From: Candidatus Thiothrix anitrata
GTDB taxonomy: Bacteria > Pseudomonadota > Gammaproteobacteria > Thiotrichales > Thiotrichaceae
Length of the DNA stretch: 64,000 nucleotides
Assembly: GCF_017901155.1 (NCBI RefSeq)
Contig: NZ_CP072800.1
Location: 2,011,283 to 2,075,282, forward strand
Direction of reading: 5' to 3'
Part shown: positions 16,178 to 48,826 of the stretch, one piece after another
How the letters are laid out: each line of letters starts with the position of its first letter
Numbering within the stretch: position 1 is the stretch's first letter
Translations under genes and position numbers: made by a program
The notes under the pieces: model-generated
The model's database searches: none
What the model saw: the letters and a program-made list of their open reading frames with translations, nothing else
What the model was told of the DNA's origin: nothing

Positions 16178-16366
16178 ATGTTACCAGTAAATCCTTTGCA
16201 GGAACGCCTAGTAGAAGAAATTAGCCAGATTCCCGATACCAAATTTGCGGAAGTGCTGGATGAGTTAAAACATTGCATCCGCCAACCAAACCCCGCACCT
16301 GTCGGTGATTTTTGCCTAGACTTAAGGAATTACCGCTTTGATCGGGAGGAAGCCAATGCCCGCTAA
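16178..16366 (+). CDS. Small antitoxin-like protein
   Basis: A 62-aa protein with a good GGAGG ribosome site. The first half (ERLVEEISQIPDTKFAEVLDEL) resembles the short helical N-terminus of DUF2281-like antitoxins. The second half (LRNYRFDREEANAR) looks like a partner-binding tail. Its stop overlaps the start of a truncated MNT gene copy by 11 bp, suggesting an original antitoxin-MNT pair. The last ~19 codons are repeated almost exactly at 17447-17506. The family call is tentative. Confidence 0.6.
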   Translation: MLPVNPLQERLVEEISQIPDTKFAEVLDELKHCIRQPNPAPVGDFCLDLRNYRFDREEANAR

Positions 16367-16441
16367 CCAACGCACGTTAAGCATCGTTGAACTCCGCGCT
16401 CTGCTGTCGGCTTTCAAACAACAGCACGGCGCGAAATACAG
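16307..16441 (+). repeat. 135-bp direct repeat, left copy
   Basis: It matches 17447-17581 at 132 of 135 positions, with mismatches at 16342, 16409 and 16434. The spacing is exactly 1140 bp. It holds the 3' end of the small antitoxin-like gene and the 5' end of the MNT nucleotidyltransferase gene. The two copies enclose the Rpn nuclease gene. Confidence 0.95.
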
Positions 16442-16466
16442 TGAACTGCTTTTAGTTCAGGCATAA
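16356..16466 (+). pseudogene. 5' fragment of an MNT nucleotidyltransferase gene
   Basis: This frame begins with the same ATG and the same first 28 codons (one changed, E to K) as the intact gene at 17496. It then departs from homology at 16442 and stops after 36 codons, before the GSY and DxD catalytic motifs. It is the truncated half of the direct repeat and cannot encode a working enzyme. Confidence 0.8.
16442..16459. repeat. Small inverted repeat at the repeat/insert junction
   Basis: TGAACT / AGTTCA arms around a 6-nt loop begin on the first base after the left 135-bp repeat. It is too short to be a convincing terminal inverted repeat, and no mate is seen at the right junction. Confidence 0.4.
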
Positions 16467-16517
16467 CCCATCGGTGATGTGCTGCACCCGCGCTGCACAG
16501 AATGCTATACTTCCCGC

Positions 16518-17357
16518 ATGGGAAACAAAGACATCATCAGTAAATCAGTGCTAGGTCATTTGGCAGCAGACATCGCCAATCTGCTGTTAGGCTTAGGCGT
16601 GGATATGGATGCGGTGGAACTGCTCGACACCGAACAGCAACGGGTAGAGCAACGCCGCGCCGACTTAGTGGCACGGATGCGCCGCCAAGCCGACGGTGAA
16701 CACTTCATCCTGCACATCGAAATCCAAAATCAGAACGACAGCACCATGCCGTTGCGGATGTTGCGTTATTTCACCGACATCCAGCTTGCCTACCCGAAAG
16801 AAGCGGTGCATCAGCACCTGATCTACATCGGCAAGGAACGCCTGACCATGCCGGACTATTTTGCCGCTCCAGCGTTCACTTATCGCTATGCCCTGCTCGA
16901 CATGCACACCGTCGATTGCAGCATCCTGCTGGCACAAGACACCCCCGACGCGCTGGTATTGGCGATTTTATGTGATTTCCGTGGTAAACCTGTACAGGAG
17001 GTGGTTAACCACATCGTGCTGCGCCTGCGTGAACTCATGGGCGACGACGAAAGCGGCTTTCGCAACTACTTCGAGATGCTCGAAACCCTCGCCGAAAACC
17101 GCGACCTGCAACCCAACATCAAAGAGGCTGAAGAAATGTTGACACAAGTAGACGTAACTAAATTTGCCTCCTATAGCTGGGGTATGAGGGATGGTATCGA
17201 AAAGGGTATCGAGAAAGGCAGATTGGAGGGTGAGTTAAAGAAATCCCAAGAGGTTGCCCGTGGTCTGTTGCAGTTGGGGGTTATTGCTGAGGCAGATATT
17301 GCCCGCATTGCTGGTTTGTCTGTGGAAGAACTCCAGAAGCTGCGGGTTCAGCACTAG
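16518..17357 (+). CDS. Rpn-family recombination-promoting nuclease / PD-(D/E)XK transposase-like protein
   Basis: A 279-aa protein of the Rpn/YhgA-like family. The nuclease core shows Asp49 (RADLV) and the E-x-Q dyad at 68-70 (HIEIQNQ). The C-terminal part has the charged repeats GIEKGIEKGRLEGELKK and a DxARIAGLSVEELQKL tail common in this family. E. coli Rpn proteins cut DNA and raise recombination. I use the ATG at 16518 (MGNKDI). An in-frame start at 16479 is possible. The gene lies alone between two 135-bp direct repeats, which makes it look recently inserted. Confidence 0.85.
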   Translation: MGNKDIISKSVLGHLAADIANLLLGLGVDMDAVELLDTEQQRVEQRRADLVARMRRQADGEHFILHIEIQNQNDSTMPLRMLRYFTDIQLAYPKEAVHQHLIYIGKERLTMPDYFAAPAFTYRYALLDMHTVDCSILLAQDTPDALVLAILCDFRGKPVQEVVNHIVLRLRELMGDDESGFRNYFEMLETLAENRDLQPNIKEAEEMLTQVDVTKFASYSWGMRDGIEKGIEKGRLEGELKKSQEVARGLLQLGVIAEADIARIAGLSVEELQKLRVQH

Positions 17358-17446
17358 GCTTATTCTTTCCTTACCATCCAGCAACTTGTGGGGGATTTTT
17401 TGGCGGATGTAGAAGAACAACGGCGGCAATTGGCAAAACCAGCATC

Positions 17447-17581
17447 GATTTTTGCCTAGACTTAAGGAATTACCGCTTTGACCGGGAGGAAGCCAATGCC
17501 CGCTAACCAACGCACGTTAAGCATCGTTGAACTCCGCGCTCTGCTGTCTGCTTTCAAACAACAGCACGGCGCGGAATACAG
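17447..17581 (+). repeat. 135-bp direct repeat, right copy
   Basis: The mate of 16307-16441 (97.8% identical). Here the MNT gene continues intact past the repeat. The antitoxin-gene part is preceded by 17358-17446, which in another frame reads like the helical end of a different antitoxin (LADVEEQRRQLAKPAS) one base out of phase with the repeated tail. Confidence 0.95.
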
Positions 17582-41038: not shown

Positions 41039-41714
41039 TGTGATTATTTCCTGCCAACAATTAAGTAAACGTTTTCAAGAAGGGCGTTTGGATGTGCAGG
41101 TGCTGCGCGGGGTTGATTTGCGAATCCATGCTGGCGAAAAAGTGGCAATTTTGGGCAGCTCCGGCAGCGGTAAAAGTACCTTGTTGCACATCCTTGGTGG
41201 CCTGGATTTACCCTCAAGCGGGCACGTGGAAGTGTTGGGTAAACGCATGGATCAGCTTTCCGATACCGAACGTGGTCAATTGCGTAATGAATCACTGGGT
41301 TTTATTTACCAGTTTCACCACCTGTTGCCGGAATTTACCGCGCTGGAAAACGTGGCAATGCCTTTGTTGATTCGTGGTGTGAAAGTTGCCGAAGCGAGTC
41401 AGCAAGCGGCAGATATTCTCGATAAAGTTGGTTTGGGTGAGCGTTTGGCGCACAAACCCGCACAATTATCAGGTGGGGAACGTCAGCGGGCGGCGATTGC
41501 ACGCGCTTTAGTGACACGTCCGCAAGCGGTATTAGCCGACGAACCGACCGGCAACCTTGATCAGCAAACGGCTGAGAATGTGTTCAATTTGATGCAAGGC
41601 TTGAACACTGCGATGAAAACCGCGTTCGTGGTTGTGACCCACGACTTGCAATTGGCAAGCCGGATGGACACGGTGTATCGCATTACTGCTGGGACATTGA
41701 CTCGTGAACGTTAA
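41031..41714 (+). CDS. lolD: Lipoprotein-releasing ABC transporter ATPase LolD
   Basis: A 227-aa ABC ATPase. Walker [10 protein letters not shown] is at 42-50, the signature is LSGGERQR, and Walker B is AVLADEPTG. The LolD-typical [21 protein letters not shown] segment is present. It powers the LolCE permeases and ends with a 4-bp overlap onto the convergent DUF2062 gene. Confidence 0.95.
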
Positions 41715-42271
41715 TGTTGTGGCGGCGTATCGCTGTCGGTTACGGGTTTTTTAGGGCGTAATTTACGCGCACGGCGTTCTTTCAAATGTTGCAGCAAGTG
41801 TAAACGCCACAATAAGTGCACGCCGTAATATCCCAGTAACGAAGAAATTACCGCCATTACTGTGAGGCCAAGGAAGAAGGGTTTCCAGATGAGGATTAAC
41901 CCGTTTTTTAGCCATTCAAGGCTGGGTTCAAAGTTAAAACCCGTGCTTGGGTGTCCTATAATCATCGCGCCCAATTCATATGCAGCGTATAACATGGGTG
42001 GCATAGTGATGGGATTGGTGATAAACACCAAGACAACGGTTAACGGTAAATTGGCACGAAAGAATACGGCTAGTATCGCGGCAAGGATGGATTGGAACGG
42101 AATCGGCAGCCACATGCAAAACAAGCCAATTGCAAAAGCTTTAGCCACATTGTTACGGTTCAAATGCCAGAGGTAGGGCAGGTGTAGGGTATCTCCTAAA
42201 AACTGGAGATGCTTATGCTGCTTGAGCTTGGCTGGATCTGGTGAGAATTTCCGTAAAAATTTCCGTGGCAT
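41711..42271 (-). CDS. DUF2062 membrane protein
   Basis: A 186-aa membrane protein with the DUF2062 pattern: an [13 protein letters not shown] head, [21 protein letters not shown], and [14 protein letters not shown]. Three or four hydrophobic segments and a basic C-terminal tail are present. The ATG at 42271 matches the family start. The frame extends upstream to 42313. Function unknown. Confidence 0.88.
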
Positions 42272-42325
42272 GAAGCACAATAACACCAAAAGAAGAAGCA
42301 CCACATTATCCATGGTTTCATTTCA

Positions 42326-42352
42326 ATGCGCACCTTTTCAGTGAGTTTTTTT
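42326..42352. repeat. 27-bp direct copy of the comEC start (left)
   Basis: ATGCGCACCTTTTCAGTGAG plus seven T is identical to 44091-44117, the first nine codons of comEC. Homology ends abruptly on both sides. The two copies bound the 1.74-kb segment carrying the AAA ATPase gene. Confidence 0.95.
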
Positions 42353-42362
42353 CAGGAATCGG

Positions 42363-43964
42363 TTACGTACCCCAAACCCAAATGTTACGTTGCAGCATTG
42401 ATGTGGTGCTTTCCGAAATTTTTTCATCCCATGACACTCCGGCACGGCGATCAAACACGATCAAATGGGCTTCGTCTGCACCGCATTGATCCGCGTATCC
42501 GGCGGTTTGAATGAGTCCTTCTGCTACGGTGGTTTCGCGTGATTTGTATAAAATCTTTAGCTCTAACACGATGCGTTGCACTTCGCCGTAGTAACCATCA
42601 GTCAGACTGACAGGCCATTCAATGTAAATGTCGGTACGTTTCCTTCCCAACCCGTATTCACGGTTAATGCGCCCGCCACCGTTGATAATGCGCTGTAAAA
42701 AGGCTTGCAGCAGCAGTTGCGGCCCTGCTTCTTTGTAATCAAACTGTTCAATCCAACTGTCAGCATTTTCGCGGAAAAACTGTTGGAATGCCCGGAGTAA
42801 TTTGGGCATATCAATGCGTCGTTGTGGGGTGAGATACCATGCTTGCTGGTGTGCCAACGAGTATTGCGTGCCGTATACCAATTCACGGGGAATCGTTTCG
42901 CGGTAGATGCGGTTGGCAATAGCCAGCACGGGATTGCGCCGAATAAGTCCCAGATCCTCTACGTATTGCAGGTCGTCGCTGGATAAGCTTCTGACGCTAT
43001 CTGCATCACTACTCAATAAGCGGCTAATAGCAGCATGAACCCGTGGCTCGCGTAATTTATCCGTCAATTGATCAAGGTGGGTTGCGCGTGATTGAATGAG
43101 GCGTTCACGTGCGGCGCGGTATTGTTCGAGGGTAATGATTTGAGTACGGTCATGTGCATTGGCATTTTCCCATGTCAGTTCGTTGCCTAGTGCATTGACT
43201 AGCCAAGGTTGTCCGGTCGAGTCTTCCCATAATTCGGCGTAGATGGCTTCATCAAATATTTGTCCGGTGTCTTGGGTGTGTTGCTCATAAAGCTGGCGTA
43301 TTTCGTCGGGGGTGAAATTCCCCAAACGCAGGGATTTGGTTTTGATATTAAACGCACTGCCACCTGTAATGATTTCATGGTGGCTGGTATGAATGCGGTA
43401 ATCCCGCACATCACGTAAGCCGCATAGAATCACGCTTTGTGGGAAGGGAATAGCAGGTCGCCCGATATAACCTTCGCGCAATTGGCGCAGCAAAGAAATC
43501 AGGGTGTCGCCGACCAATGCATCCACTTCATCAATCATTAGCACGATGGGCTTAGCAGATTCGGCTGCCCAACGGCTTAACAGGGTTTGTACGACCGAGG
43601 TACTACCGCCGGATTGCCATGCTTCGGTTAACCAGGTTTGCAGGCGCGTATCGTGTAAACGGTATTTTGCACCTTCAACAATGCGGCTGGCGATGGTGCG
43701 CATTCCCTGTTCAACGTCATTGCGTGCTGCTTGTGCGGCTTCGACATTGATGAACAATGCCGTGTATTCAGCGGATGCATTCAGCTTGTCGGCTAGCGCA
43801 AGCAGGGTACTGGTTTTGCCTGTTTGACGCGGGGCGTGCAGTACAAAAAACTTTCCAGTTCCGATAAGGTGTTGTATTTCTTTAAAATTCACCCTTGTGA
43901 GCGGATCAACGCAGTAATGCTCATTGCTACGAACGGGGCCAGCGGTGTTGAAATGTCTGGACAT
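42363..43964 (-). CDS. AAA ATPase with possible C-terminal PD-(D/E)XK-like domain
   Basis: A 533-aa protein of the large AAA_35-like ATPase group found in multiple copies in filamentous and mobile-rich bacteria. Walker A APRQTGKT is at 44-51 and Walker B VLMIDEVD around 141-148. A helical STAND-like lid and winged-helix region follows. The last ~120 residues show GLGRKRTDIYIEW and VLELKILY, a pattern like the D...ExK core of a restriction-fold nuclease. It has no partner gene. It sits between direct copies of the comEC start, opposite in strand, which suggests acquisition. Function unknown. Confidence 0.8.
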   Translation of the reverse strand: MSRHFNTAGPVRSNEHYCVDPLTRVNFKEIQHLIGTGKFFVLHAPRQTGKTSTLLALADKLNASAEYTALFINVEAAQAARNDVEQGMRTIASRIVEGAKYRLHDTRLQTWLTEAWQSGGSTSVVQTLLSRWAAESAKPIVLMIDEVDALVGDTLISLLRQLREGYIGRPAIPFPQSVILCGLRDVRDYRIHTSHHEIITGGSAFNIKTKSLRLGNFTPDEIRQLYEQHTQDTGQIFDEAIYAELWEDSTGQPWLVNALGNELTWENANAHDRTQIITLEQYRAARERLIQSRATHLDQLTDKLREPRVHAAISRLLSSDADSVRSLSSDDLQYVEDLGLIRRNPVLAIANRIYRETIPRELVYGTQYSLAHQQAWYLTPQRRIDMPKLLRAFQQFFRENADSWIEQFDYKEAGPQLLLQAFLQRIINGGGRINREYGLGRKRTDIYIEWPVSLTDGYYGEVQRIVLELKILYKSRETTVAEGLIQTAGYADQCGADEAHLIVFDRRAGVSWDEKISESTTSMLQRNIWVWGT

Positions 43965-44090
43965 GGTAGTGCTTGCTTTGGTGTCAATACGGCAAGTATA
44001 GCACGCTGGTTTGACCGCTTGGCGAGGGACTGATTAAGGTGTGTTTGGCGTGTGTTAGGATGCCATGTAAATCATCTGCATGAGATTGAG

Positions 44091-44117
44091 ATGCGCACCT
44101 TTTCAGTGAGTTTTTTT
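44091..44117. repeat. 27-bp direct copy of the comEC start (right, in the gene)
   Basis: The mate of 42326-42352, identical over all 27 bp. This copy is the true comEC 5' end. Confidence 0.95.
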
Positions 44118-46400
44118 ATCGGCACGCTGCTGTTATTGCTGCTGCCGCACATGCCTAGCCTTGATGCGTTATTTTGGGGCATATATTTCGGCGTTTTCTT
44201 GTTGTTGTTGAGTGGCTACTGGATGCTGCGGCAACGTTTGCCCATGCCGGTATTATTGTTGGTAACGGGATGTTGGTTAGGTGGTGGTTATGCGTTGCAT
44301 ACAGCAGAAGGAGTCTTGGCCAGTTGGTTGCCCGCCGCGTGGGAGGGCGAAGATGTCCTGTTGAGCGGAACGATTGCTGATGTGCCTGCAACCACAGTAG
44401 GTGGATTGAGTTTTGTGTTTGATGCCGATCATCCTGAGTTTAAAGGGCGGTTGCGGGTGGCATGGTATGCCGATGAAATACCATTGGTGTATGCGGGGGA
44501 GCGTTGGCAGTTTTTGGTGAGGGGGAAGCGTCCGCACGGTTTCAGTAATCCTAACGGTTTTGATTATGAGCAGTGGTTGTTTTCCCAGCGTATTGGCGGA
44601 AGTGCTTATGTGCGTGCATCGCCTGACAATCAACGTTTGGCTGAGGCTTCGCCTTGGGCAGTGAATGCTTGGCGGCAAGATTTGAAAATAGCGATTGAAA
44701 CGGCTCTGGCGGATTCGCCCGCGACAGGTTTGGTGCAGGGGTTAGCCGTGGCTTACACCAAAGCGATTACCCAAGAACAATGGGAGGTGCTGCGCGATAC
44801 CGGTACGATTCATTTGCTGGCGATTTCAGGGTTGCACATTACGATGGTGGCGGGGCTGGGTATTTTGCCAGTGTGGGGTATTTGGCGGCTATTTCCGGGG
44901 TTGTATTCATGGTTGCCGCTGCGGGTGGCGGCGGGTATTGCCGGTGGTGGGTTGGCAACGGGGTATGCGTTGCTGGCGGGATTCAATATTCCTACGCAAC
45001 GCACTCTGTTGATGTTGTTGGTGGTGTTGCTGGGGTTGGTGTGGCGGCGACAAATTCCGTTTAGTGTGATTTTGGCGACGGCGTTGTTGGCGGTGTTGCT
45101 GCTTGATCCTTTGGCGGCGTTGGCGGTGGGTTTTTGGTTGTCATTTATTACCGTGGGTTTGTTGGCTTGGCTGGGGTTGCGTCAGCGGCGTGTGGGTAGC
45201 GGATCGGTGGTATGGATACAGCTCGTGTTGTCACTGGGGTTGTTACCATTAACGGCTGGTTTTTTTGGGATGGTGTCGCTGAGTTCGCCGCTGGCAAATT
45301 TGCTGGCAATACCGGTGATAACGTTTTTGGTAACGCCGTTGGTGTTGCTGGGCATTGTGTTGGTCGGTTGGTGGTCAGCGGCCGCCGCGTGGGTGTGGTC
45401 GGGTGCGTCAATATTATTAACTGGGTTAATGGCTGTGTTGGAATGGTTGGCGGCTTTGCCCTTGGCTGCGGTAGCGATGCCTTTGGTGCCGTTGCTTTGG
45501 TTAGGGGTGGCACTGGTCGGTTTTGGGTTATTGTGTCTGCCAAAGGGAATGCCGGGTCGGTGGTTGGGGTTGTTGCTGATGTTGCCGATGCTACTTTATC
45601 AACCGGAAAAACCCGCTGAGGGGGCGTTTCGGGCGAGTGTCTTGGATGTGGGGCAGGGTTTGGCAACGGTGGTGCAAACCGCGCAGCATACTTTGGTGTT
45701 TGATACTGGCCCTAAAACCTCAGATACTTTTGACACAGGGGCGTTAGTGGTGCTGCCTTGGTTATATGGGCAAGGTTTGCGCAGTGTCGATCGCTTGCTG
45801 GTGTCGCACGCAGATAATGATCACAGCGGTGGTGCGCAAGCATTGGTCAATACCATGTCCGTTGGCGATATTTGGGTGGGAACGCCGGATATTTTACCGC
45901 AACAGTCAACCGCCTTGTGCGAGGCAGGGCAGCAGTGGGAGTGGGATGGGGTGCAATTTAGCGTGTTGCACCCTTCGCCCGCGTTCAAAGAGCCGCGTGA
46001 TAATAACCGTTCTTGCATGTTAAAAGTAAGCAATGCGCACCACAGTTTATTATTGACGGCGGATATTGAACGTCCGGTTGAGCAGTGGTTGCTTAAACAA
46101 CGTGCCGATTTGGCGGCTGATGTGCTGTTATTGCCGCATCATGGCAGTAAAACTTCGTCGAGTCCTGCATTTATCAATGCGGTTGCGCCGCGTTTGGGTA
46201 TTGTTACCAGCGGGTATCGCAACCGTTATCATCACCCGCATCCGTCCGTGACTGCACGTTATGAAGCACGCGGTATAAAATTACTGAATACCGTAAATAG
46301 CGGGGAATTGCGTTTGGATTTTCCTGATACAAATACAGCATTTGAGATTCGTGAGTGGCGTCAGGTGCGGCCGCATATTTGGCAGAAGCCTGCAATGTAA
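44091..46400 (+). CDS. comEC: DNA internalisation competence protein ComEC/Rec2
   Basis: The inner-membrane channel for incoming single-stranded DNA in natural transformation. It has 769 aa: an N-terminal DUF4131 region, the Competence domain with about ten helices (HLLAISGLHITMVAGLG near 240), and a C-terminal metallo-beta-lactamase domain from about 510 with SHADNDHSGG and LLPHHGSKTSSS. I use the ATG at 44091, which is also the start of the duplicated 27 bp. The frame extends upstream to 44052. The gene looks fully intact. Confidence 0.95.
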   Translation: MRTFSVSFFIGTLLLLLLPHMPSLDALFWGIYFGVFLLLLSGYWMLRQRLPMPVLLLVTGCWLGGGYALHTAEGVLASWLPAAWEGEDVLLSGTIADVPATTVGGLSFVFDADHPEFKGRLRVAWYADEIPLVYAGERWQFLVRGKRPHGFSNPNGFDYEQWLFSQRIGGSAYVRASPDNQRLAEASPWAVNAWRQDLKIAIETALADSPATGLVQGLAVAYTKAITQEQWEVLRDTGTIHLLAISGLHITMVAGLGILPVWGIWRLFPGLYSWLPLRVAAGIAGGGLATGYALLAGFNIPTQRTLLMLLVVLLGLVWRRQIPFSVILATALLAVLLLDPLAALAVGFWLSFITVGLLAWLGLRQRRVGSGSVVWIQLVLSLGLLPLTAGFFGMVSLSSPLANLLAIPVITFLVTPLVLLGIVLVGWWSAAAAWVWSGASILLTGLMAVLEWLAALPLAAVAMPLVPLLWLGVALVGFGLLCLPKGMPGRWLGLLLMLPMLLYQPEKPAEGAFRASVLDVGQGLATVVQTAQHTLVFDTGPKTSDTFDTGALVVLPWLYGQGLRSVDRLLVSHADNDHSGGAQALVNTMSVGDIWVGTPDILPQQSTALCEAGQQWEWDGVQFSVLHPSPAFKEPRDNNRSCMLKVSNAHHSLLLTADIERPVEQWLLKQRADLAADVLLLPHHGSKTSSSPAFINAVAPRLGIVTSGYRNRYHHPHPSVTARYEARGIKLLNTVNSGELRLDFPDTNTAFEIREWRQVRPHIWQKPAM

Positions 46401-46501: not shown

Positions 46502-48826
46502 ATGAATTTGGAAGAAAAGGACATCGAAATATTCAAGAAATTGGATTCCAACGTTTATCTCACTTTGAATGATAAGCAGGCATTGAAATCCGGCTTGGAT
46601 GAGTTGGAGCGTCGTTTACAGGAGCGTGAACGGCGTTTGCAGGATATTTCCGGGTTATTGCTGGAAAAAGATGGGCATGTGCGGGTGCGTGATGCGCGGA
46701 TTGATGAGCGCGATAAGCGTGTTGCGGAGCTGGCGCAATTACTCGCTGAAAAAGAACAAATTTTACTCAAGATTAGTCAGGCTACGGCTGAAAAAGACAC
46801 CGTATTGCGGATTCGCGATGAGCATTTGAGCGGCAAAGATAAAACCATTCACCAACGTGATGCGGCGTTAGCCGAACGTGAAGCACGGCTTAAAATTGTC
46901 GAACAAAATCTGGTTAATTACGAAAAATTATTGCAGGAAAAAGAGCTGCAAATCCAAGCGCGTGACCGCAGCATGGAGGATAAAGACCGCTCCTTAATGC
47001 GCATTGATCAGGCGATTCAAAGTAAAGATAAATTACTGCAAAGCCGCGACGACAGCATTAGCAAAAAAGATCAGCAATTACTGGAGCGCGAAGCTCTGTT
47101 GCAAGAGCGTACCCGGCAGACGCTTGAACAAGAGCGGATGCTTAAAGAGCGCGATAAACATTTAACCGAACGCGATACTCAAGTGGCGGAACGTGATCGC
47201 CAACTCGCGGCGCGTGACGAACACATCAACCTTGTCAGCAAGCAGTTGCAAAACCGCGATACGCAACTGGATGAGCGCGATCAGCAAATTCACAGCCGCG
47301 AACGCTTGCTGGCGGAAAAAGAAAACCTGCTGCAAGAGCGCGATCAAACCCTTGGCATTCAGCAGCAGCAGCTTGAAAAGCGTGACCATACTTTAAGCGA
47401 ACGTGACCAACAACTCAGTGAGCGTGACCGTACCGTTGCCGAGCGTGATGCTGAATTACGCGCCCGTGAAGAAGCGATTCGCAACCGTGACCAACAGGGT
47501 CTGGAATTTCTGCAAACCATCCGTGAGTTAGAAACGCACTTGCAAGAACGCGATGGGCAGCTCAGTGAACGTGACCGCCAGTTGTCATTGCGCGATGAGC
47601 GCATTAATAAAGCTGATGAAGATTTACGTGACCGCGATACCCGTTTGGGCAGTCGTGACCGCACCGTGGAAGAGCGCGATGCGCAAATGTCAGAGCGTGA
47701 CCGGCGCATTAAAGAGCGCGATATTTCCCTGCGTGAACGTGACACCCGCATCAGTGGGCAAGATTTGCAACTGCGGGAGCGCGATAAACAGTTACAACTG
47801 CGTGATTCGCAAATCCAAAGCCGCGATGTCACCATCGGCGAACGTGATCACAGCCTCAAGGAACGTGACAGCCACGTTTCCCAGCTCAATGCGCAAATGC
47901 AGGAGCGTGACGAAACCATTCACGACCGAGATTCCCTGATTACTGAGCGCAATGCGGTGATTCAAGGGCGCGACGAAACCATTGGCGAGCGTGATTTACA
48001 ACTGGCGGCGCGTGATTTGAGTGTGCAGCAGCGCGACACCAGCGTGCAGCAACGCGATGTCAATATTGAAGGATTGACCCTGCAAATTCACGAGCGCGAT
48101 AAAAGCTTGCAACAGCGTGATAAAGAAATCGCCGCCCGCGATACCCAAGTGCGCGATTTGCAACTTGAAGTGCATTTGCGTGACCAAAGCGTGGCGGAAC
48201 GCGATGTGCAATTGCAGTTACGCGATCAAACTGTGCAAGACCGCGATGAACAGCTTGATGTGCGCGATGAAACCGTGGCGGAACGCGATGCCAGCATTGC
48301 GGAGCGCGACGCACAATTAGAGCAGCGCGATTTACACATCCAGAAAAAAGAAGAAGCGTTACAAGAGCGTGACCACCAAATCAAAACCCGCGATACGACG
48401 GTGGCGATGCGTGACCTCAGTTTGAATGAGCGTGACGGGCAACTGGCAAAGCGTGATGGGCAATTAGCCGAACGCGATGCACAGATCAAAAACCGCGATG
48501 TCAGCCTGCATGACCGTGATCAAACCATTATCGCCAAAGAAGGCCACATTCGCCGCCGCGATGAGCGCATTCAAGAATTAACCTTACACATCCAGCATTT
48601 AGAAAACCTCTCGAAGGAACAAATGCAGCAATTGCAGCAGCGCGATGAAGCGTTACGCCAGCGCGATTTGATCGTTGCCCAGCGTGACCGTCAAATCGAC
48701 AAGCTCGACAAAAGCGTGGTTAAGTACGCGGCTGGGGCGCAAAGCATTTTTATTAAAGGCGCGGTAACGGGATTGCTGGCGGCGTTTGCGTTTGTGTTGG
48801 GGCTGCGGTTGTTGGCGATTTTGTAA
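46502..48826 (+). CDS. Giant E-R-D heptad-repeat protein with C-terminal membrane anchor
   Basis: A 774-aa protein. After a ~60-residue helical head, roughly 60-735 is an almost unbroken series of about 90 seven-residue units of form E-R-D-x-x-(L/I/V)-x, with occasional RD or KD variants. A C-terminal hydrophobic segment (GAVTGLLAAFAFVLGLRLLAIL) would anchor it, tail-first, in the inner membrane with the helix in the cytoplasm. Only one position per heptad is hydrophobic, so it is either a highly charged coiled coil or a single stable helix. Units use varied synonymous codons, so the repeat is not a recent DNA expansion. I know no family for it. The function is unknown, perhaps a scaffold or spacer. 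Confidence 0.85.
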   Translation: MNLEEKDIEIFKKLDSNVYLTLNDKQALKSGLDELERRLQERERRLQDISGLLLEKDGHVRVRDARIDERDKRVAELAQLLAEKEQILLKISQATAEKDTVLRIRDEHLSGKDKTIHQRDAALAEREARLKIVEQNLVNYEKLLQEKELQIQARDRSMEDKDRSLMRIDQAIQSKDKLLQSRDDSISKKDQQLLEREALLQERTRQTLEQERMLKERDKHLTERDTQVAERDRQLAARDEHINLVSKQLQNRDTQLDERDQQIHSRERLLAEKENLLQERDQTLGIQQQQLEKRDHTLSERDQQLSERDRTVAERDAELRAREEAIRNRDQQGLEFLQTIRELETHLQERDGQLSERDRQLSLRDERINKADEDLRDRDTRLGSRDRTVEERDAQMSERDRRIKERDISLRERDTRISGQDLQLRERDKQLQLRDSQIQSRDVTIGERDHSLKERDSHVSQLNAQMQERDETIHDRDSLITERNAVIQGRDETIGERDLQLAARDLSVQQRDTSVQQRDVNIEGLTLQIHERDKSLQQRDKEIAARDTQVRDLQLEVHLRDQSVAERDVQLQLRDQTVQDRDEQLDVRDETVAERDASIAERDAQLEQRDLHIQKKEEALQERDHQIKTRDTTVAMRDLSLNERDGQLAKRDGQLAERDAQIKNRDVSLHDRDQTIIAKEGHIRRRDERIQELTLHIQHLENLSKEQMQQLQQRDEALRQRDLIVAQRDRQIDKLDKSVVKYAAGAQSIFIKGAVTGLLAAFAFVLGLRLLAIL

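What the first reader, a model, noticed from the sequence alone, without database searches (positions are those of the whole stretch)
42326..44117. AAA ATPase segment flanked by a perfect 27-bp duplication of the comEC start
The first 27 bp of comEC occur again, exactly, 1765 bp upstream. Between the copies lies a single reverse-oriented AAA ATPase gene with a possible nuclease tail. comEC remains intact. A 27-bp perfect direct repeat bounding a foreign-looking gene resembles a target-site duplication, yet there are no terminal inverted repeats or transposase.
Basis: partly seen in the sequence, partly recalled or inferred. Interest (0 to 1): 0.65.

Follow-up and report, generated by a model that had tools for sequence, protein, structure and literature searches.

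The report
Nuclease gene inserted at comEC start
A single ATPase-nuclease gene has been inserted at the start of the DNA-uptake gene comEC, copying the first 27 letters of comEC as it went in, much as described before for restriction-modification genes that move without a transposase.

Summary
The first 27 nt of comEC occur twice, 1765 bp apart, around 1738 bp holding one AAA+ ATPase/PD-(D/E)XK nuclease gene. It is an insertion: 11 of 15 congeners carry the 27-mer once, at an unoccupied comEC start (10 exactly), and G010 has the two flanks joined with one copy. Of 18 clean indels between G000 and G010, only this one has a repeat of 15 bp or more.

No inverted repeats, transposase or attC pattern were found. 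The window holds a second case: an Rpn-like nuclease gene with a 135-bp duplication, single in G005. Flanking repeats accompany 9 of 92 AAA-family loci against 7 of 676 control genes. Footprints vary: duplication, deletion, filler, ORF swap.

This works like the 'insertion with long, variable target duplication' published for restriction-modification genes. New are the cargo, lone nuclease genes, and re-use: G013 carries unrelated 6.3-kb cargo at the same place, with a 27-nt copy on each side. That weakens the idea that this nuclease cut its own way in. Mechanism unproven.

The parts
42326..42352 (+). left copy of the 27-bp target duplication (former comEC start, now beside DUF2062)
42353..44090 (.). 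1738-bp insert, absent from the same place in G010 and other congeners
42363..43964 (-). 533-aa AAA+ ATPase (AAA_35) with C-terminal PD-(D/E)XK nuclease domain; Walker and nuclease motif residues present
42353..42362 (.). 10 nt between the gene's stop codon and the left copy
43965..44090 (.). 126 nt upstream of the AAA gene: promoter-like TGCTATACT near the gene, then about 77 nt with no match at E 0.001 in the 56 other genomes searched
44091..44117 (+). right copy of the 27-bp duplication = first nine codons of intact comEC
44091..46400 (+). comEC, intact (Competence, DUF4131, Lactamase_B)
41711..42313 (-). DUF2062 gene, left neighbour of the target site
16307..16441 (+). related second case: left copy of a 135-bp duplication (132/135 identical)
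16442..17446 (.). related second case: 1005-bp insert, absent in G005 and G011, partly present in G009
16518..17357 (+). 279-aa Rpn-like gene (TIGR01784, E 3e-13, 50.2 bits, just under its 52.1 cut-off)
17447..17581 (+). right copy of the 135-bp duplication, running into the start of a nucleotidyltransferase gene

Best explanation
A one-gene unit (short upstream region plus an AAA+/PD-(D/E)XK nuclease ORF) entered the DUF2062-comEC junction by transposase-free insertion with target duplication. SHOWN: relatives have the 27 nt once and the flanks joined; the window has two copies, no flank lost, comEC intact; no inverted repeats, transposase gene or attC pattern in the insert; the same place holds other cargo in G013. 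INFERRED: the two strands of the comEC start were opened 27 nt apart (at the ATG and just after the T7 tract), the incoming segment was joined to the ends by end joining or template switching, and the overhangs were filled in, giving two copies. Insertions that leave the neighbouring gene whole survive, which would explain why the repeat holds a gene start here, at the Rpn-like insert and probably at an Rpn-like gene of G013. Flanking repeats then allow loss or exchange by homologous recombination. Whether the encoded nuclease makes the break or is only frequent cargo is open; I put driver at about 0.3.
For: Flanks joined with one copy in G010; one copy at an unoccupied site in 11 of 15 congeners; 1 of 18 clean indels between G000 and G010 has an overlap of 15 bp or more, this one. 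Second footprint in the window: Rpn-like gene, 135-bp duplication, single copy with joined flanks in G005. Third, probable and without an empty site: AAA gene in G006 between 21-bp repeats. Flanking repeats in 11 of 94 AAA loci against 8 of 677 control genes; 9 of 92 against 7 of 676 without tandem copies, Fisher p 2e-5. Some recent copies at different loci share little beyond upstream region plus ORF: AAA L040/L049, 95.8% from 51 nt upstream to the stop codon; Rpn-like, from about 46 nt upstream to 4 nt past the stop. No inverted repeats at the ends of three inserts.
Against: Both repeat ends coincide with features (the ATG; the end of T7), and G013 shows the same two ends with unrelated cargo: more site-specific than random breakage predicts. 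83 of 94 AAA loci show no repeat. An empty site was shown for only one AAA insertion. For the Rpn-like insert, G009 has the gene's 3' part joined to the right repeat and target gene, so the site was occupied in another lineage too and the single copy in G005 and G011 could be loss. Some AAA pairs share flank well beyond the ORF (L163/L175 573 nt past the stop, L036/L044 238 nt, L173/L179 170 nt upstream). In L120 (118 bp) and L188 (59 bp) the copies differ largely at synonymous-looking positions (by eye), fitting donor-carried flanks better than a decayed duplication. Staggered cutting or end joining was not shown.
Confidence: 0.6

Rival explanations
1. Site-specific integration: the 27-mer is an att core, and a recombinase encoded elsewhere inserts circles (gene plus 27-mer) at the comEC start; AAA in G000 and a DUF1800/DUF1501 pair in G013 are two such circles.
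For: Same two junctions with different cargo in G000 and G013; over 14 congeners whose comEC start was located the 27 nt are 96% identical to G000 against 71% for the next 27; att-like length; integron-type integrases over the curated cut-off in 13 of 16 genomes, the window's included.
Against: Family members elsewhere have different repeat sequences and lengths; no attC pattern in the insert; no recombinase gene in the insert; integron insertion is not expected to duplicate 27 bp (recalled).
Confidence: 0.2
2. Homology-facilitated import: DNA with the cargo next to a donor's comEC start recombined with the host comEC on one side and joined illegitimately on the other, leaving a partial host copy.
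For: Explains why the repeat begins exactly at the ATG; G013's own comEC start matches the G000 27-mer at only 22 of 27 while the stray copy matches at 25; mainly synonymous-looking differences in L188 and L120 (by eye).
Against: Needs a donor with AAA upstream of a comEC having the same 27-mer; in none of the 15 congeners does an AAA match lie beside the 27-mer. The 60 nt left and 40 nt right of the repeat are identical in G010, with no donor-like block.
Confidence: 0.13
3. Transposition in trans by an insertion sequence with a target duplication near 27 bp (IS1202-like, recalled).
For: IS1202-type elements are recalled to make duplications of about 24-29 bp; no tool result supports this here.
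Against: No terminal inverted repeats in three inserts; related events give 135 bp and probably 21 bp, a deletion of about 80 bp and an ORF swap. I did not search the genome for such a transposase.
Confidence: 0.04
4. Assembly artefact or chance repeat.
For: None found.
Against: 27/27 match, single-contig genome, single copy with joined flanks in relatives, coherent synteny.
Confidence: 0.01

Closest known systems
Insertion with long (variable) target duplication of restriction-modification genes (Nobusato et al. 2000; Furuta et al. 2010), as described in passages of PMC1643837, PMC3031569 and PMC3874152; the two original papers were not read
   Same: Single copy in a relative, direct repeats of variable length at the insert's borders, no transposase, nuclease-type cargo.
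   Different: Cargo is one ATPase-nuclease gene without methyltransferase; 27 bp is short against 'in the order of 100 bp'; the site is re-used by unrelated cargo; ORF-for-ORF replacement also seen.
Rpn (YhgA-like) recombination-promoting nucleases (Kingston et al. 2017, PMC5350276, passages read)
   Same: Lone PD-(D/E)XK genes, patchy, often several paralogues, proposed as DNA-mobilising; the window's second insert is of this type.
   Different: The AAA protein is not an Rpn; in the passages read the target site stayed unresolved, whereas here a footprint is seen.
AAA-ATPase_like (PF09820) + PDDEXK_9 (PF08011), the DUF1703 family (PMC6387759, abstract and passages read)
   Same: AAA ATPase fused to PD-(D/E)XK, expanded and horizontally spread; in G011 the AAA_35 gene stands where G015 has such a gene.
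   Different: The window protein has no PF09820 or PF08011 match at E 0.001.
Archaeal SSO1545/PABY2304-type ATPases; arCOG03166 (AAA+ fused to HTH and RecB nuclease, 'likely involved in defense', table passage of PMC4158269)
   Same: Best structural matches of the AAA part: 2qen Z 17.2, rmsd 3.6, 313 aligned; 2fna Z 15.6, rmsd 3.9, 313 aligned. Membership in arCOG03166 not tested.
   Different: 15% and 14% identity; the aligned ranges end near residue 360, before the nuclease domain.
Tn7/CAST/Mu (TnsC, MuB AAA+; TnsA PD-(D/E)XK)
   Same: AAA fold match (7ufi VchTnsC Z 13.0, rmsd 3.7, 247 aligned; 8xvb MuB Z 12.7, rmsd 3.6, 239 aligned) and a nuclease of TnsA's superfamily (recalled).
   Different: No DDE transposase in the insert, no terminal repeats, no 5-bp duplication.

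Membership tests
Insertion with long target duplication | single copy of the repeat, flanks joined, in a relative | tested here: met
Insertion with long target duplication | repeat in the order of 100 bp | tested here: not met
   27 bp at comEC; the Rpn-like insert has 135 bp
Insertion with long target duplication | repeat length varies between events | tested here: met
   27, 135 and probably 21 bp
Insertion with long target duplication | cargo is a restriction-modification gene complex | tested here: not met
   one AAA-nuclease gene, no methyltransferase
DDE transposon or insertion sequence | terminal inverted repeats | tested here: not met
   best end match 6, null mean 5.8
DDE transposon or insertion sequence | transposase in the unit | tested here: not met
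Integron gene cassette | attC site (RYYYAAC ... GTTRRRY) after the gene | tested here: not met
   no match in insert and 100 nt around; strict pattern only, no structure test
Integron gene cassette | integron integrase in the genome | tested here: met
   TIGR02249 over cut-off in 13 of 16 genomes, G000 included; 0 of 14 control genomes over it
Rpn (PF04754 / TIGR01784), for the second insert | reaches the curated model score | tested here: inconclusive
   TIGR01784 50.2 bits, cut-off 52.1; PF04754 12.8 bits, cut-off 21
DUF1703 (PF09820+PF08011) | matches to both domains | tested here: not met
   not listed for the window protein at E 0.001
Tn7-like TnsC | same fold family as TnsC rather than other AAA+ groups | tested here: inconclusive
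   TnsC is in the list but ranks below archaeal ATPases, NLR and Orc proteins
Active PD-(D/E)XK nuclease | D, ExK and Q motif residues | tested here: met
   D445, E468, K470, Q486 invariant in 66 proteins, present in the window protein
Active PD-(D/E)XK nuclease | DNA cleavage in vitro | not testable with these tools
   bench assay needed

The most novel reading that the evidence does not exclude
Lone PD-(D/E)XK nuclease genes (AAA+-fused and Rpn-like) are one-gene mobile elements: the protein opens a target with a wide, variable stagger and its own gene, bounded by its promoter and stop codon, is copied in, without terminal repeats or transposase; such genes also displace each other ORF for ORF.
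Probability: 0.22. Interest if true: 0.85.

Novelty: new variant of a known kind. Interest (0 to 1): 0.55.

Why it matters
Genes annotated 'AAA-like domain' or 'Rpn, putative transposase' are many-copied and patchy; relatives of this one are found nearly full-length at 49-68% identity outside the genus, in records named for many phyla and for archaea (most are metagenome-assembled, so some labels may be wrong). How they spread is unsolved. Two footprints in one 64-kb window, in a genus with 15 sequenced congeners, give a defined target, a before-and-after state and a control, so self-movement can be tested directly.

Tried and rejected
Terminal inverted repeats: none in three inserts. attC cassette: no match to a strict pattern. 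Xer/dif: the comEC start shares GGTGCGCAT (reverse strand) with the XerC arm of E. coli dif as I recall it, but the rest of the repeat lies on the wrong side; a recalled comparison, not a tool test. Phage carriage: no match in 50,697 phage records; plasmids: 15 records, all under 60% identity. PADLOC and NCBIfam gave only weak matches to the AAA protein.

An integron-like array was suspected at O-antigen-type loci: the repeated 24-mer beside one AAA gene (L046) is part of the 3' end of what I read as an epimerase gene, copied many times between toxin-antitoxin, Uma2, Rpn-type and AAA genes. I do not count it as a clean duplication, though L046 stays in both statistics.

L054, L049 and L047 gave no clean empty site: rearranged on at least one side. 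The repeat of L175 appears to come from another partial AAA copy upstream, and L147 lies between AAA copies; both were dropped for the second test, as was one control gene that is itself an AAA paralogue, 52% identical. Seven loci that duplicate genus loci were dropped before the count of 94. Of 24 Rpn-like loci fetched, 13 were tested; the other 11, mostly fragments, were left out. Part of the AAA set is orthologous and G000 and G010 control genes overlap, so the Fisher p is optimistic. An early figure of 99% conservation of the 27 nt was biased, because those genomes had been found by that very pattern and one hit was the stray copy of G013; one search corrects it to 96% over 14 congeners (G004's comEC was not located). 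The first structure job (8 sequences) was poor, pLDDT 64, and was replaced by one with 66. The fold searches mainly tested residues 1-435; the nuclease domain was not searched alone.

Full report
What is there. The first 27 nt of comEC recur exactly 1765 bp upstream. Order: DUF2062 gene (-), 27-mer, 10 nt, AAA gene (-), 126 nt, 27-mer as the start of intact comEC (+). What precedes the left copy and follows the right copy is continuous in G010, the congener most alike at this locus (84% over DUF2062 against 73% or less), with one copy. In G000 the 27-mer occurs twice. Of 15 congeners, 12 have one hit (10 exact, one with 1 and one with 2 mismatches) and 3 none within 3 mismatches. Of the 12, 11 are unoccupied comEC starts; the twelfth, G013, is discussed below. 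So 1738 bp entered and 27 bp of target were duplicated.

Which organism. Contigs of two congeners equal named Thiothrix records in length (G012:C23, 244,844 bases, and NZ_FNQP01000003; G007:C5, 446,480 bases, and NZ_JAFMPM010000005), so the genus is probably that of Thiothrix caldifontis. This is inference.

The gene. AAA_35/AAA_22 ATPase with a C-terminal PD-(D/E)XK domain seen from motifs and model: D445, E468, K470 and Q486 are invariant in 66 homologues. Model pLDDT 86.3, pTM 0.80. Nearest solved folds of the AAA part: 2qen (Z 17.2, rmsd 3.6, 313 aligned) and 2fna (Z 15.6, rmsd 3.9, 313 aligned), then NLR, Orc/Cdc6, TnsC and MuB proteins. In the genus 11 of 16 genomes have matches at E 1e-20, up to 11 places in G013, fragments included; in the family 18 of 63 genomes at E 1e-30.

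Is the repeat special? Over 464 kb of G000 against 400 kb of G010, of which only part aligns, there are 18 clean indels. In 17 the flanks lie between 55 bp apart and 5 bp overlapping; in this one they overlap by 27 bp. Of 94 AAA loci 11 have a flanking repeat scoring 14 or more; mispaired flanks give 1 of 1404. Other genes give 8 of 677 (4 of 141 in the same loci, 3 of 274 in G000 without the AAA gene, 1 of 262 in G010), one of the 8 being the Rpn-like insert below. Without tandem copies: 9 of 92 against 7 of 676, p 2e-5. So 83 of 94 show none, and repeats at single loci can have other causes.

A second footprint in the same window. An Rpn-like gene at 16518-17357 lies between 135-bp repeats (132/135). 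G005 has one copy with both flanks joined, overlap exactly 135 bp; G011 has an overlap of 128 bp. In G009 the 3' part of the gene, the right repeat and the target gene are continuous, so that site was occupied there too, and I cannot exclude that G005 and G011 lost the insert. Copies of the gene at 95% identity elsewhere in G001 and G009 share with the window only the stretch from about 46 nt upstream to 4 nt past the stop. In G001 that copy sits in the same kind of target gene with about 80 bp missing instead of duplicated. Beside the window unit lie about 30 and 85 nt of filler; some 75 nt of it occurs in G005, G001 and G009 near their Rpn-like gene, and in G011. Of 13 Rpn-like loci tested 4 have repeats, two of them neighbours in G013.

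Other AAA events. Gene names here are my reading unless a Pfam call is given. In G006 the gene is bracketed by 21 bp of the 3' end of a dusC-like gene; its 45-nt 3' tail is 88% identical to an inner piece of a neighbouring TPR-like gene. A near-identical gene (95.8%) lies at another locus in G000; likeness ends at the stop codon. Not all pairs are so compact: L163/L175 stay alike for 573 nt past the stop, L036/L044 for 238. In G011 an AAA_35 ORF with 9 nt before and 7 nt after stands where G015 has a PF09820+PF08011 gene, between hsdS (Methylase_S) and an arfB-like gene; immediate flanks 98-99% identical.

Site re-use. In G013 the DUF2062-comEC junction holds 6.28 kb with DUF1800 and DUF1501 genes. 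The left copy matches the G000 27-mer at 25 of 27 and ends at about the same nucleotide; comEC's own start matches at 22 of 27. Different cargo, same two ends: the site itself seems preferred. Over 14 congeners the 27 nt are 96% identical to G000 against 71% for the next 27. This is the strongest result against a purely AAA-driven event.

Literature. [quoted passage not shown] also passages of PMC3031569, and PMC1643837); of the original papers one was asked for and not held. Rpn proteins raise RecA-independent recombination, and rpnC seems to have entered one place twice (PMC5350276, passages). A search for the AAA_35 names found no paper with two of three terms; a search for transposase-free single-gene insertion listed 16 papers, none of which, from its listing, describes this. 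That is no proof of absence.

Verdict. Insertion with target duplication: near certain. It works like the restriction-modification type of insertion, but fails two of its usual features (length near 100 bp, restriction-modification cargo), so I file it as a variant, not a member. Agent of the break: unknown.

Noticed in passing
window 16307-17581: Second single-gene insert (Rpn-like nuclease) with a 135-bp duplication at the start of a nucleotidyltransferase gene; single copy in G005.
   Followed up: yes
L297 2439-8774 (G013): Unrelated 6.28-kb insert (DUF1800/DUF1501) at the same comEC-start site with a 27-nt copy on each side.
   Followed up: partly
L093-L099 (O-antigen-type loci of several congeners): Arrays in which the 3' end of an epimerase-like gene is repeated between toxin-antitoxin, Uma2, Rpn-type, DUF1800/DUF1501-like and AAA genes, like cassettes.
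   Followed up: partly
L280/L281 (G015/G011): ORF-for-ORF swap of two different AAA-PD-(D/E)XK genes between hsdS and an arfB-like gene.
   Followed up: partly
window 44091-44117 and comEC starts of congeners: The first nine codons of comEC, with a run of seven T, are far more conserved in DNA than the next codons; reason unknown.
   Followed up: partly
G000:C1:2303995-2304933: Integron-type integrase (433 bits, cut-off 265); 13 of 16 genomes of the genus have a match over the cut-off.
   Followed up: no
window 46502-48826: 774-aa coiled-coil-like protein rich in E-R-D repeats next to comEC, also next to comEC in G013.
   Followed up: no
L282 (G013:C4:3498000-3505500): Two Rpn-like genes about 2.5 kb apart, each between imperfect copies (34 and 28 bp) resembling the start of a nearby ORF.
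   Followed up: partly
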